From Candidatus Nitrosopelagicus sp. (GTDB lineage Archaea; Thermoproteota; Nitrososphaeria; Nitrososphaerales; Nitrosopumilaceae), in contig JAOMDA010000006.1 in assembly GCA_028345295.1 (NCBI GenBank), positions 1-64,000 of the forward strand: DNA of 64,000 bases. The letters run 5' to 3'. Both the position numbers and the translations under genes were made by a program. A model generated the notes under the pieces. That model worked only from the letters and a program-made list of their open reading frames with translations. It had not been told where the DNA came from and made no database searches. The stretch's first letter is position 1; every line of letters begins with the position of its first letter. Shown here piece after piece: positions 47,825-64,000 of the stretch.

Positions 47825-48444
47825 TGGACAAAACTGCAAAGTATTTTGATCATTGGGCAAATATTGGAAGGTCAGAGGACATGGAAAAAGGACATGGAAC
47901 TACTGTAAACAAATTTTTAGATAAAATATCATTTGAAAAGAAATTTTCGTTTTTAGATATTGGCTGTGGAAATGGTTGGGTAGTAAAGAAGATGTCACAA
48001 TTGGATACTTGTACAAAGGCAGTTGGTATTGATAAGAGTAAAAATATGATAAGGAATGCTAAAAAAACAAAAATTTCAGTCAAGGAGCAATACTACACTA
48101 CAGATCTAGAGACGTGTAAATTTTCTACAAAATTCGATGTAATTTTTTCAATGGAGTCATTATATTATTCAGTTCCAATGGAACCTGCATTACATAAGGT
48201 GTATAAATTACTGAAAAATGGTGGAGTTTTTTATTGTGGTACTGACTTTTACAAAGATAATCATCTTACAACACGCTGGATTAAAGATATGAAAATACCA
48301 ATGGACTTGCGTTCAGAATCAGAATGGAAAAAAATGTTCAAGGAAGTAGGTTTCAAAACAAAAACAAAACATGTTACTGATCTGAATAATAAGGCTAAAT
48401 GGAAAAGAGAGTTTGGAACATTATTTTTAATTGGAATTAAGTAA
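47821..48444 (+). CDS. class I SAM-dependent methyltransferase
   Basis: FSFLDIGCGNGWVVKKMSQ; VGIDKSKNMI; FDVIFSMESLYYS. Confidence 0.9.
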   Translation: MMDKTAKYFDHWANIGRSEDMEKGHGTTVNKFLDKISFEKKFSFLDIGCGNGWVVKKMSQLDTCTKAVGIDKSKNMIRNAKKTKISVKEQYYTTDLETCKFSTKFDVIFSMESLYYSVPMEPALHKVYKLLKNGGVFYCGTDFYKDNHLTTRWIKDMKIPMDLRSESEWKKMFKEVGFKTKTKHVTDLNNKAKWKREFGTLFLIGIK

Positions 48445-50932
48445 TTGACTTCTCCTCTCTTTGAGTTTTTGCCTTAATTACAAAGATTACTGCAGCACCT
48501 AAGATCAATATCACTATTATTAAAATAAAAGAATAGTCATTTTGATTTGATTTTGATAATGATGTAGTAATTTCTACGCTTGGAAGAACTGTTATTGTGT
48601 CAGAAACTAGAAAACTGGTTGAATATTCAAATGGTCTTAAGACATCATCAGATGCAGCAAAAACTTTGAGCGTATTTGCACCTGTATTAAGATTTGATAA
48701 AATTTCTTCATCTAACGAAACTATTGATTTATTGTTATCAACTGGTACTTTTCCTTCAGAAATTATATCCCCACGTGAATTAGAGATAAAATAGTAAATT
48801 TCAGATGAATCTGCTGTTATTATTGGAATCTCCGTGTCAAAATCACTTGGTAACAATTCATCAATTTCTATTGAAACAATTTTAGGAAACTCAATATGTT
48901 CAAATCCATTCCATTTTCCAGGTGGAAATGGATAATCTCCATAGTCAAATGATTTAACCACTATAGTTCTAGATTCTGGTGAATATCTATCAAGGTAAAA
49001 TGGTCCATTGCTTATTATTGCATGATCATTTTCAAGAATCCAATCAATCGATTGTTGATATCGATTATCATAATATTGAATATTGGTTTCAAATTGATCT
49101 AGTGCCACAGGAATGTACTTGTTTTCTTTGTAATCTTCAAGAATATCTTGGATAATTTTTGCATCTTGAGGTACAATCAGTGAAAGCCAGCTAATGTTCT
49201 TTGTTATTGCATCAGAGCGTGAAAATGATACTTTTCCATCAATGACAGATTTTTCCATTGCAGTCATAATTTCCCAAGGTGTTGTACTCCAAATACCAGC
49301 CCATGATGCAATCTGATCTTGATCAAAATGCCAGTAATCGGTGTATACTTCTATTGTATTTGCATCTACAACCCTAAATCCAACCAATGAATTTACATTC
49401 TGAACTGCTTGAGGTGAGAAACTAGAATCATATGTTTTATCGTTTACCCCTTTTTCAGAACCCCACTCAGAAAGAAAATAGATTGAATACAAAACATCAT
49501 TCATGTCCATCATTTGTCCATTATGCCACTGACTAAAATTAAGATCAAAAGTTACTTTACTAATTGCTGTTGAGTCAGTTTCAACTTTTTCCCATCTTTG
49601 AATTTCTGTATTCCAAATTATGGCGTCATTATGTACAGGTACTGAATAATGTAAACCATTGGTTTCAATATCCCATGTAGTTCGTAGTGGAAAAATCTCA
49701 CCAGTAAATGGATGCCCATACATACCAGGATCAGAAAGTATTGTCCAAATCTGATTACTGTATATATCACCTAATCCAGCTATAGGATTCCATGCACCTT
49801 GATAGATTTGTTTTACACCAATAACCAAAGAATTATCTTCCGAATCTGCATTTATTGGTGTAAATCTGCTTGGTACACCTGCACCAAGTGCATTAATTAC
49901 TCCAGTGACATTTTCGTTTGCAACATATTGATCAACTTTACTAGCAAGAAAAATTCTGACTGATTCATTAACACCTTCCTTTGTTGCGTTTTTGATTAGT
50001 GAGGTTCTCTCTTCTGATGTTTCAAAATTTCCAGAATAAATGTTCTGTGTAACAGTGTCCAAATAATCATTTTGGTAGTTCCAATAAGTTGGCGTATTAT
50101 TTCCAGGCATATTAGAAAACCATGGCGCATACATCTGTGCTAATGAAATAGAATCATATCTTGAGAATCCAGTACTGCTCCATGCTTCAGTGTATAAATT
50201 CCACTTCTGCTCACTTGGATCAGATCCATATACAATCACATATGCTTTATTCAAATCTCCAAAGTCCTTTTTCACAAGAAATCCAAATGATTCTAGTTCA
50301 GATGATATAATTTCGCCAATTGATTTTCTAACTGGATCATCACTTCGAATAAAAATTGTAATTTCTATAGGTATATTATTGAAATTCCATACACCATCAA
50401 TTTTTTTTGCTCCTGATTTTTCTAATTGTTCAGAGATAATCTGTTCTGCAAGAACAGGATTATACGTAAACTGAAATGATTCTGTGACATCTAGTATTCC
50501 AAGATAGTCAGCAGAAAATATGCCATAATTTGAAATCATTGTAGAGCCAAATCCACCTAAGAGTTCATTAACAATGAGATTTCTATCAATAAGATAATTC
50601 AATGCAAATCTTACTTCCCTAATAGAAAATGGATTAAATTTTCCAGAGTCTGTAGGATTTGTAAGAATACTGTAATAACTACCAGTAGAATCAAAAACCT
50701 GTAAATTATTTCTTGAATCGAAATCTTCTAATCTATCTGATGGAACCCTAAAATAATATAGATCAAGATTTCCATTTCTAACCTCTTGAAGTGCAGTATT
50801 TTCATCAAGATATTGTATGAATTTAACTTCATCAACTAATGTTCCTTTATCAGCAAATGAAGATGGAAATACAAAAAGTAAAACCATAATAACAAAAAGA
50901 AGTTTAAATTTGATCAATTCTTCTAACACCAA
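48437..50932 (-). CDS. SBP_bac_5-type solute-binding protein, apparently circularly permuted, C-terminal TM anchor
   Basis: N-term has SBP second-half motifs (DENTALQEVRNGNLDLYYFR; IREVRFALNYLIDRNLIVNELLGG), C-term has first-half motifs (AWNPI…; WHNGQMMDMNDVLYSIYFL; NGPFYLDRYSPES). Confidence 0.8.
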   Translation of the reverse strand: MVLEELIKFKLLFVIMVLLFVFPSSFADKGTLVDEVKFIQYLDENTALQEVRNGNLDLYYFRVPSDRLEDFDSRNNLQVFDSTGSYYSILTNPTDSGKFNPFSIREVRFALNYLIDRNLIVNELLGGFGSTMISNYGIFSADYLGILDVTESFQFTYNPVLAEQIISEQLEKSGAKKIDGVWNFNNIPIEITIFIRSDDPVRKSIGEIISSELESFGFLVKKDFGDLNKAYVIVYGSDPSEQKWNLYTEAWSSTGFSRYDSISLAQMYAPWFSNMPGNNTPTYWNYQNDYLDTVTQNIYSGNFETSEERTSLIKNATKEGVNESVRIFLASKVDQYVANENVTGVINALGAGVPSRFTPINADSEDNSLVIGVKQIYQGAWNPIAGLGDIYSNQIWTILSDPGMYGHPFTGEIFPLRTTWDIETNGLHYSVPVHNDAIIWNTEIQRWEKVETDSTAISKVTFDLNFSQWHNGQMMDMNDVLYSIYFLSEWGSEKGVNDKTYDSSFSPQAVQNVNSLVGFRVVDANTIEVYTDYWHFDQDQIASWAGIWSTTPWEIMTAMEKSVIDGKVSFSRSDAITKNISWLSLIVPQDAKIIQDILEDYKENKYIPVALDQFETNIQYYDNRYQQSIDWILENDHAIISNGPFYLDRYSPESRTIVVKSFDYGDYPFPPGKWNGFEHIEFPKIVSIEIDELLPSDFDTEIPIITADSSEIYYFISNSRGDIISEGKVPVDNNKSIVSLDEEILSNLNTGANTLKVFAASDDVLRPFEYSTSFLVSDTITVLPSVEITTSLSKSNQNDYSFILIIVILILGAAVIFVIKAKTQREEKSIT

Positions 50933-50940
50933 CTAAACAA

Positions 50941-51450
50941 ATGATGGATTTTAGGCTTTTAATATTAACCAAATTTAGTAGATTTGGCATGAATAGTGGT
51001 AAACTCAAGGCAGCATTTACCGCAATCACAGATGGTTATCCAATAGAGGAAGTTTCAGAGTGTTTGGATTGGAAAGATTTTGAAGGATTGGTATGCCAAA
51101 TTTTACTTGAAAATGGATTTCAAGTAGAAAAGAATGTGATTTTAACAAAACCAAGAATGGAAATTGACGTTATAGGAATAAAACTCGATATTGTAATACT
51201 AATTGATTGTAAACATTGGAAAAGAATGAGTAATTCTGCTCTTAATGAGATTGTAAGAAAACAGGTTAATAGGGTAAAGAGGTACGCCGATGAAATTAGT
51301 GATATTATGACAATTCCAGTTATAGTAACACTACATCAAGAACAAGTTTCTTTCATTAACAAAGTTCCAATAGTTCCAATCATGCAATTATCGTCATTTC
51401 TAGATGAATTGTATGGTAATTTAGAACAGATTAAAACTATAGAAAAATAG
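50941..51450 (+). CDS. Mrr-like restriction-endonuclease-fold protein
   Basis: DWKDFEGLVCQILLENGFQVEKNVILTKPRMEIDVIGIKLDIVILIDCKHWKR. Confidence 0.75.
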   Translation: MMDFRLLILTKFSRFGMNSGKLKAAFTAITDGYPIEEVSECLDWKDFEGLVCQILLENGFQVEKNVILTKPRMEIDVIGIKLDIVILIDCKHWKRMSNSALNEIVRKQVNRVKRYADEISDIMTIPVIVTLHQEQVSFINKVPIVPIMQLSSFLDELYGNLEQIKTIEK

Positions 51451-53179
51451 AAAGTGCAAACAACCCAGCGTCTGCAAGCAAAAAGACCTTTGTTATATTC
51501 ATTGATTTATTCATGCATTTAAGATAGTCAGCATAGATATCAGAACCCATCACCTTAACTTTGGATTGGTTTTCCAGAATTTCAAAACTACATTCATTCA
51601 TTTGATTTTCTGCCTTTTGTGCCAATTCTAAATACCAGTTAGCAAGTTGTGTTGGTTTTGATATCATACCTAATTGAAAATAACCATTTTTGTTTCTTGC
51701 ACCATCAGCAGTAAAATGTGTATCAGATGTACATATCTCAATTAATTCATATCCAATGTTTGCAAAATGTTTTACAATCTGTTCTCTAACTCCGTTTTCC
51801 ATGTTGTTTGCATCAGCCCAACCAACGAAATATTTTTTCTCATTAATCTCTAAACATAAAATTGCAATTCCACCCATGGCTATATCTGCCTTCTTTATGT
51901 TCATATCATTCGAATTCTGATAGCCAAACTTGAAGGGGTAACTTTGTTTTGTTTTTAATGTATCTAAAGTTGATTTTGCTGCAATTAACAAGTCCTCAGA
52001 ATCTTCTTTAGAAATTTCATCTCCCATTGCATTATGCGTATCTACAATCATGACTTGCTCAAAGTTTCTATTTTTTGCAAATTGCTCAATCTGAGTTCTT
52101 ACCTCCATTGTCAAGTCTTCCATTCCATGTGGAGATAGAGACAAAAATAGTAGCGCTGTCTTGTCAAAGAGTAAGCCAGCAGCTCGTGCATTATTAATTT
52201 TAACACTCACTGGCTCTGTACATCCAACACCGTTTCTTAGAACATGACTATCTGATATGCTAGTGAGATAATTGCTTACTTCCTCTTGACTTGGGAGATT
52301 TAGATCATGATTGGATATACTATGCATGACCATAGCTGTAGAATCCATATTCTTGTAAATTAAATATGGAATGTTACTTCCCCCAACTGGATGAAATGGT
52401 CCAGGATGAATATCTGGTAAGACCATACTGAATCTTACTTGTTTATCATTTGATTGAAATTTGATTTGAGTAGTTGATACAGTTGAAGTTTTTGATTTTC
52501 GTTCAATAATTTGCTCCATTTCGCTTGGATCATTTTTTGATGCGGATGTAACATATGCTTGAATTAATTCATGTGTACTATCAACTGCAGGTCTACCTGC
52601 TCTATCTGTAAAATAACTCCAGCCAGTTGCTAGTCCTAAAAATGCGGCACCAAACAACAATGCCATCGGATTAGTCAAAGAGTCAAACCACATTGTAGGA
52701 GGAATTAGAACTAGATACATTGCCAATGGTTGAATGAATGCAACCCCCCATGCTTTTTTCAAACTTGCACCAAGAATAGTTGTGAATATTCCAATTCTAA
52801 AACTAGCAAAAACAAACATACCTATTGTGACATAAAATAAATCAAGATTATCTTTGGCAAATAGCATCATAGCGCCAAATCCTATAAGTGTACTTACAAA
52901 AAATAATCCATTCCCAAATAATGAAACATGTAATGATTTTGAGTATTCCTTATGTCTAGAAAATAAAATATCTAGAAACTGTGTTCCTACAAGAACTCCG
53001 ATTACACTAAGTACTGGAAAAATAACATCAGATATGTTTAGATATGTCAAAGATACAAATGCTGCCATTATTCCTGCAACGGCAACTGAAATTACCAATG
53101 AGATGTAATGTGATGAGGGGTTAAGTAGCGTTAATGAATATCGCTTCTGAATTTTACTAACGTCATCTTGTTCAGACAT
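51437..53179 (-). CDS. DUF2070-family membrane protein
   Basis: Multi-TM N-term plus LPDIHPGPFHPVGGSNIPYLIY; IVDTHNAMG; CTSDTHFTADGARNKNGYFQLG. Confidence 0.85.
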   Translation of the reverse strand: MSEQDDVSKIQKRYSLTLLNPSSHYISLVISVAVAGIMAAFVSLTYLNISDVIFPVLSVIGVLVGTQFLDILFSRHKEYSKSLHVSLFGNGLFFVSTLIGFGAMMLFAKDNLDLFYVTIGMFVFASFRIGIFTTILGASLKKAWGVAFIQPLAMYLVLIPPTMWFDSLTNPMALLFGAAFLGLATGWSYFTDRAGRPAVDSTHELIQAYVTSASKNDPSEMEQIIERKSKTSTVSTTQIKFQSNDKQVRFSMVLPDIHPGPFHPVGGSNIPYLIYKNMDSTAMVMHSISNHDLNLPSQEEVSNYLTSISDSHVLRNGVGCTEPVSVKINNARAAGLLFDKTALLFLSLSPHGMEDLTMEVRTQIEQFAKNRNFEQVMIVDTHNAMGDEISKEDSEDLLIAAKSTLDTLKTKQSYPFKFGYQNSNDMNIKKADIAMGGIAILCLEINEKKYFVGWADANNMENGVREQIVKHFANIGYELIEICTSDTHFTADGARNKNGYFQLGMISKPTQLANWYLELAQKAENQMNECSFEILENQSKVKVMGSDIYADYLKCMNKSMNITKVFLLADAGLFALSIFL

Positions 53180-63362: not shown

Positions 63363-64000
63363 ATGAGTGAAATCTTAAGAGTTGAAGGTCTAACCAAGAC
63401 TTTCTCAAAAAAAGGAATTTTTCGCTCAGACTCAAATTTTGTTAAAGCAGTAAACGATGTAAGTTTCTCATTATCAAGAGGAGAAATTTTAGCGATTGCG
63501 GGTCAATCGGGGTCTGGAAAATCAACTATTGCAAAATTAATTCTAAAAGCAATTGAACCTGACTCAGGTAAAATATTTTTTGATGGAAAAGAGATTTTAG
63601 ATAATTCTCAAAATCTTGAAAAATTTCGAAGACAATGCCAAATGATATATCAAGATCCATATGATTCAATAAATCCCAGAATGAAAATTTTTGATATAAT
63701 CAATGAACCATTAGAAATCCATGATGTAAAAAAAGAAGAACGCAGGAAAATTATCTTAGAAACGCTACATCTAGTAAAATTAGAACCTGCTGAAGAAATT
63801 TTAGAGAAATTCCCACACATGCTTTCTGGTGGACAACGTCAAAGAGTGGCTATTGCAAGAGCTTTGGTAACAGATCCACGGATAATAATTGCAGATGAAC
63901 CAGTCTCAATGCTTGATGTTTCTGTTCGGGGTGAAATTTTAGAGTTGCTGAATGAAATACAAAAAAAGAATAATATTTCATTTATTTACATCACACATGA
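63363..64000 (+). CDS. Opp/Dpp-type ABC transporter ATP-binding protein (partial, runs off window)
   Basis: MSEILRVEGLTKTFSKKG…AGQSGSGKSTIAKLIL… MLSGGQRQRVAIARALVTDPRIIIADEPVSMLDVS. Confidence 0.93.
   Translation, partial: MSEILRVEGLTKTFSKKGIFRSDSNFVKAVNDVSFSLSRGEILAIAGQSGSGKSTIAKLILKAIEPDSGKIFFDGKEILDNSQNLEKFRRQCQMIYQDPYDSINPRMKIFDIINEPLEIHDVKKEERRKIILETLHLVKLEPAEEILEKFPHMLSGGQRQRVAIARALVTDPRIIIADEPVSMLDVSVRGEILELLNEIQKKNNISFIYITH

What the first reader, a model, noticed from the sequence alone, without database searches (positions are those of the whole stretch)
48437..50932. Family-5 solute-binding protein with apparently circularly permuted lobe order
In SBP_bac_5 proteins the W-H-D/N-G…DV-x-YS and GPF/Y-x-L segments precede the D-E-x-x-ALQ-x-L-x-x-G-x-x-D and VR-x-A-x-x-Y-x-IDR segments. 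Here the order is reversed. After the signal peptide come VDEVKFIQYLDENTALQEVRNGNLDLYYFR and IREVRFALNYLIDRNLIVNELLGG, then the usual C-terminal-like region. Only then come SLVIGVKQIYQGAWNPIAGL, WHNGQMMDMNDVLYSIYFL and NGPFYLDRYSPESRTIVVKSF, followed by an Ig-like linker and a TM anchor. This suggests a natural circular permutation in a surface-anchored peptide/nickel-type receptor.
Basis: partly seen in the sequence, partly recalled or inferred. Interest (0 to 1): 0.62.

Follow-up and report, generated by a model that had tools for sequence, protein, structure and literature searches.

The report
Naturally circularly permuted archaeal peptide receptor
The gene encodes a cell-surface nutrient receptor of the peptide-uptake (OppA/DppA) type whose two halves are joined in the opposite order to the known solved relatives, and this rearranged form is the standard version across ammonia-oxidizing archaea and much of their phylum.

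Summary
The 831-aa minus-strand ORF (48437-50932) matches Pfam SBP_bac_5 in two pieces in inverted order: residues 32-257 fit model 147-352, and a later stretch fits model 19-140. A family profile covers Thermococcus kodakaraensis OppA (PDB 7fi3_A) almost end to end, again in swapped order: profile 381-673 to chain 16-309, then 27-369 to chain 312-722. There is one copy of each half, so this is a circular permutation, not two domains. With 32 relatives the AlphaFold model is confident (pLDDT 88.8, pTM 0.83). The cut lies in lobe I, after the GPFYL segment, rather than between the lobes. Of the two-module ORFs checked, 138 have the permuted order (repeat fetches included) and only one family of three genes has the canonical order. 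Relatives sit in dppBCDF-type operons. The window's genome has one such transporter, dispersed, and this is its only SBP_bac_5 gene. Trees place that canonical-order family inside the permuted clade, suggesting that order has switched at least three times, once back to canonical. Substrate, binding and docking are inferred from relatives. I found no earlier description in the open library.

The parts
48437..50932 (-). Complete ORF (831 codons, TTG start, stop at 48437-48439): circularly permuted family-5 solute-binding protein
   Evidence: start supported by 90%-identical L004
50852..50932 (-). Signal peptide, residues 1-27 (cleavage site by eye)
   Evidence: predicted helix 2-20, low confidence at 21-25; full-length relatives examined have a hydrophobic N-terminus just before module A
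49823..50839 (-). Module A, residues 32-370: equals the canonical C-terminal half (7fi3_A 312-722)
   Evidence: SBP_bac_5 model 147-352, 76.5 bits; profile alignment to 7fi3_A, 192 bits
50660..50704 (-). Long strand 77-91, likely first lobe crossover, kept intact
   Evidence: model secondary structure; crossover role inferred from family knowledge
49916..49957 (-). Long strand 326-339, likely second lobe crossover, kept intact
   Evidence: model secondary structure; crossover role inferred
49808..49837 (-). Junction, residues about 366-375, where the ancestral C-terminus is joined to the ancestral N-terminus
   Evidence: 7fi3_A residue 722 aligns to profile 369 and residue 16 to profile 381, about 11 positions apart
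48905..49822 (-). Module B, residues 371-676: equals the canonical N-terminal half (7fi3_A 16-309), with WHNGQ and NGPFYL motifs
   Evidence: SBP_bac_5 model 19-140, 25.6 bits; 7fi3_A 18-309 at E 8e-27 with this part alone
48563..48904 (-). Beta-strand-rich spacer domain, residues 677-790 (Ig-like by inference)
   Evidence: strands 684-777 in the model; no significant Pfam match
48452..48535 (-). C-terminal membrane anchor helix, residues 800-827, followed by basic residues
   Evidence: helix 800-827; hydrophobic composition of the sequence
63363..64000 (+). DppF/OppF-type ABC ATPase (runs past the window end), candidate partner 12 kb away
   Evidence: ABC_tran 126 bits; oligo_HPY at G000:C21:64059-64169 in the same 282-aa frame

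Best explanation
This is a family-5 (OppA/DppA/NikA-type) substrate-binding protein whose gene has been circularly permuted. The ancestral N- and C-termini, both in lobe I, are joined by a linker of about ten residues. New termini lie at a lobe-I loop between the GPFYL segment and the VDEVKF strand. The protein is exported by a signal peptide at the new N-terminus. At the new C-terminus a beta-domain spacer and a transmembrane helix should hold it on the outer face of the membrane. It most likely still folds as a two-lobed receptor, closes on an extracellular oligopeptide or a similar solute, and delivers it to the genome's single DppBCDF-type importer. Shown here: inverted order, single copy of each half, conservation, a confident model, operon linkage in relatives. 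Inferred: ligand, lobe closure, docking, anchoring. The likely origin is tandem duplication followed by loss of the outer halves, a textbook route for which no intermediate was found.
For: Inverted two-piece SBP_bac_5 match and nearly full-length swapped match to T. kodakaraensis OppA. Sequential Foldseek aligns only 403 columns against the 724 residues of that structure, as expected of a permutant. Model pLDDT 88.8, pTM 0.83 from 32 sequences. Same order down to about 25% identity across the class. SBP-permease-permease-ATPase-ATPase operons in relatives G151, G165 and G018 (domains checked for G151). The own genome has one SBP_bac_5 gene, one large DppB/C-type permease pair and two oligo_HPY ATPases. 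Shorter relatives L122 and L126 pass the Pfam cut-off separately in both halves, model 145-361 then 4-153.
Against: No structure or binding data were found for any permuted member. The model alignment contained only permuted sequences, so it does not independently prove the canonical fold, and Foldseek was not run on the halves separately. In the window's genome the gene is not next to the permeases.
Confidence: 0.85

Rival explanations
1. The protein is a fusion of two different or two tandem SBP domains, each incomplete or divergent, rather than a permutant.
For: 831 aa is longer than a bacterial SBP (about 500 aa).
Against: Each half of the canonical protein occurs exactly once, the halves share no similarity, and together they cover 7fi3_A 16-722 almost without gap or overlap. 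The extra length is insertions shared with TkOppA plus spacer and anchor.
Confidence: 0.02
2. The order is an assembly or gene-calling artefact of a metagenome-assembled genome.
For: The window's genome has 24 contigs and is 92% complete.
Against: Same single-ORF architecture in hundreds of genomes, including single-contig ones such as G046, G003, G007 and G109.
Confidence: 0.005
3. The protein is a permuted SBP that no longer serves transport and acts as a surface adhesin, sensor or scavenger.
For: In Nitrosopumilaceae-like genomes (family f1) the gene lies apart from the permeases and ATPases.
Against: Relatives in other families keep the SBP-permease-ATPase operon. Most related genomes tested have a single SBP_bac_5 gene, so the transporter would have no receptor. 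Residues across both modules stay invariant.
Confidence: 0.1
4. The receptor takes up nickel, a metal chelate or an oligosaccharide rather than oligopeptides.
For: Family 5 includes NikA and chitooligosaccharide receptors; NCBIfam's nickel model matches weakly (22 bits against a cut-off of 600).
Against: The closest solved relative by a wide margin is TkOppA, crystallised with a pentapeptide.
Confidence: 0.3

Closest known systems
Thermococcus kodakaraensis OppA (PDB 7fi3)
   Same: Best sequence and structure match; both halves align along nearly their full length, including most of the large insertions
   Different: Halves are in canonical order (B then A); the matched chain ends soon after module A, so no spacer domain follows module B
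Bacterial SBP_bac_5 proteins (AppA, DppA, NikA, NikZ)
   Same: Same domain family and individual motifs
   Different: Canonical order and about 500 aa; only one half can be aligned at a time
f46 proteins L162-L164 (G445, G512, G768)
   Same: Members of the same large-insert family, in a complete Opp-type operon (L187)
   Different: Canonical order although they nest among permuted sequences
Short permuted SBPs L122, L126, L144 and others
   Same: Same cut point and the same signal-A-B-spacer plan
   Different: About 610-770 aa in most, without the large insertions; their permutation may or may not share the same origin

Membership tests
SBP_bac_5 (family-5 solute-binding proteins) | Match to PF00496 above the curated cut-off | tested here: met
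   91.3 bits against 32.4; all 32 members of A1 match at E <= 0.01
SBP_bac_5 (family-5 solute-binding proteins) | Collinear match over the model | tested here: not met
   Model 147-352 precedes model 19-140
SBP_bac_5 (family-5 solute-binding proteins) | Two-lobed fold that binds a solute | tested here: inconclusive
   Confident model and Foldseek match over about half the fold; binding not testable
Circular permutant | Both parts of the relative present once, in swapped order, with breakpoints at its termini | tested here: met
   7fi3_A 16-309 and 312-722 matched in swapped order; no duplicated module
Opp/Dpp-type ABC importer receptor | Encoded with DppB/C permeases and oligo_HPY ATPases | tested here: met
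   Met in G151, G165, G018 (domains checked for G151); in the window's genome the parts are dispersed
TkOppA-type oligopeptide receptor | Binds oligopeptides | not testable with these tools
   No ligand data; inferred from 7fi3
C-terminally anchored archaeal SBP | N-terminal signal peptide and C-terminal transmembrane helix | tested here: inconclusive
   Helices 2-20 and 800-827 in the model; no dedicated signal or TM predictor was run

The most novel reading that the evidence does not exclude
In this archaeal receptor family the order of the two halves has switched at least three times at the same loop, including one return from permuted to canonical order (the f46 family), so circular permutation here is a recurrent and reversible change rather than a single accident.
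Probability: 0.6. Interest if true: 0.75.

Novelty: new variant of a known kind. Interest (0 to 1): 0.62.

Why it matters
Natural circular permutants are usually isolated cases found by comparing structures. Here one is the standard form of a nutrient receptor in most of the window's class that was examined and in many other members of its phylum, and tools that assume collinearity align only half of it. It moves the membrane anchor to another site of lobe I, which asks how such a receptor docks on its permease. The canonical-order members nested among permuted ones give a natural experiment on whether permutation is reversible and what it changes in folding, anchoring or transport.

Tried and rejected
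A single-sequence AlphaFold run was useless (pLDDT 34). The one genome-contig scan, made with a single protein, gave only close relatives, so other phyla were not surveyed. Plasmid records gave only partial matches in Agrobacterium and other Proteobacteria. Tandem domains and assembly error were considered and rejected. I first thought that the cut fell at the inter-lobe hinge; comparison with NikA numbering (lobe border recalled from memory) and the long strands 77-91 and 326-339 place it inside lobe I. A single origin for all permuted sequences with no reversal was rejected on the tree (AU p 8e-64 for all permuted together, 2.6e-5 for the large permuted ones together). Placing TkOppA as the basal canonical lineage is not rejected (p 0.30), while placing f46 outside is (p 0.002).

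Full report
What is there. The minus-strand ORF 48437-50932 encodes 831 aa. Pfam SBP_bac_5 matches residues 32-257 at model 147-352 and, further on, at model 19-140. The second piece alone (25.6 bits) is under the curated cut-off of 32.4; the whole protein (91.3 bits) is over it. Against solved structures, phmmer finds 7fi3_A at E 5.7e-48 in two swapped pieces. A profile of 32 relatives (A1) covers that chain from 16 to 722 with profile 381-673 first and 27-369 second, 188 and 192 bits. Foldseek names that entry as T. kodakaraensis OppA in complex with an endogenous pentapeptide. So each half is present once, and the order is a cyclic shift.

Where the cut lies. In TkOppA the break falls between residues 309 and 312; in the Pfam model near position 145. 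NikA is matched from residue 187. From memory, NikA's lobe border is near residue 245, so the cut is inside lobe I, and roughly the first 60 residues of module A still belong to lobe I. The model's long strands 77-91 and 326-339 are then the two lobe crossovers. The ancestral termini are joined within about 11 positions, which fits their being neighbours in lobe I.

Conservation. In 400 genomes of the class, 314 match, most of the listed ones over nearly the whole query, including single-contig genomes. Forty more divergent genomes were re-searched, and the retrieved ORFs are collinear with the query. With separate profiles for the modules, 138 ORFs have A before B, 4 have B before A, and none has a duplicated module. 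Some genes were fetched more than once, so 138 is not a count of independent genes; the 4 represent three genes, L162 (the same as L121), L163 and L164. In the phylum sample 278 of 398 genomes match at E 1e-8, but weak matches there include ordinary canonical SBPs, so this is not a count of permuted genes.

A second permuted group. Shorter proteins, most of about 610-770 aa (L122, L124-L128, L142, L144, L147, L156-L159, and the longer L143 and L161), also begin with module A after the signal and continue into module B. In L122 and L126 both halves pass the Pfam cut-off separately: model 145-361 first, then 4-153 or 4-148. For the others the second half was read by eye from the sequence. Ordinary canonical SBPs (L129, L145, L146, L148-L155) coexist in the same phylum.

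History. Sequences were put into one order and a tree was built. The large permuted, short permuted and large canonical sequences lie together against the small canonical ones. Within the large group the canonical f46 genes sit among permuted ones; the modB and modA trees place f46 next to the same three permuted genes (100/98 in modB, only 82/57 in modA). AU tests reject one clade of large permuted sequences (p 2.6e-5) and reject f46 as an outside lineage (p 0.002), but do not reject TkOppA as the basal canonical lineage (p 0.30). Parsimony needs three changes of order on the tree. Either one permutation was followed by two reversals, or two permutations by one reversal. The f46 reversal is the firmer part. 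Caveats: long branches, an outgroup joined by a very long branch, groups named after the first tree was seen, and a TkOppA sequence copied from the printed alignment.

Function. In G151, G165 and G018 the permuted gene heads a run of two permease-sized and two ATPase-sized ORFs in one direction; Pfam confirms BPD_transp_1 twice and ABC_tran plus oligo_HPY twice in G151 and in the f46 operon. In the window's genome the parts are dispersed: permeases on contig 2, oligo_HPY ATPases on contig 19 and at the window's right end, and this protein is the only SBP_bac_5 gene. Most related genomes checked also have one. The parsimonious reading is the receptor of the cell's one Opp/Dpp-type importer. Peptide as ligand is inferred from TkOppA only.

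Organism. The relatives found in named records are Marine Group I / Nitrosopumilales thaumarchaea, including a Candidatus Nitrosopelagicus contig, so the window is taken to come from a marine ammonia-oxidizing archaeon; this was not tested with marker genes.

Prior knowledge. Ten searches of the open PMC library found no report of a permuted family-5 SBP, and a 2025 preprint on finding circular permutants (PMC12667903) does not mention periplasmic or oligopeptide-binding proteins. Subscription papers, including any paper on the TkOppA structure, could not be read, so novelty is provisional.

Noticed in passing
L187:7179-14763 (G445) and L163, L164: Canonical-order members nested among permuted ones, in a complete Opp-type operon in G445: an apparent return to the ancestral order.
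   Followed up: partly
window 63363-64000 (+): DppF/OppF-type ATPase running off the window end, 12 kb from the receptor gene; the importer's genes are scattered in this genome.
   Followed up: partly
L142, L143, L159, L161, C-terminal ends: Short permuted receptors ending in paired DxDxDG-like repeats that look like dockerin modules (L143 also has CARDB repeats) instead of a membrane helix; Pfam made no dockerin call at E 1e-3 for L142, L143 and L161.
   Followed up: partly
window 50941-51450 (+): Small Mrr-type nuclease-domain protein (26.9 bits against a cut-off of 21) divergent from the receptor gene, 8 bases between the ORFs.
   Followed up: no
window 51437-53179 (-): DUF2070 predicted membrane protein (433 bits) upstream of the receptor on the same strand.
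   Followed up: no
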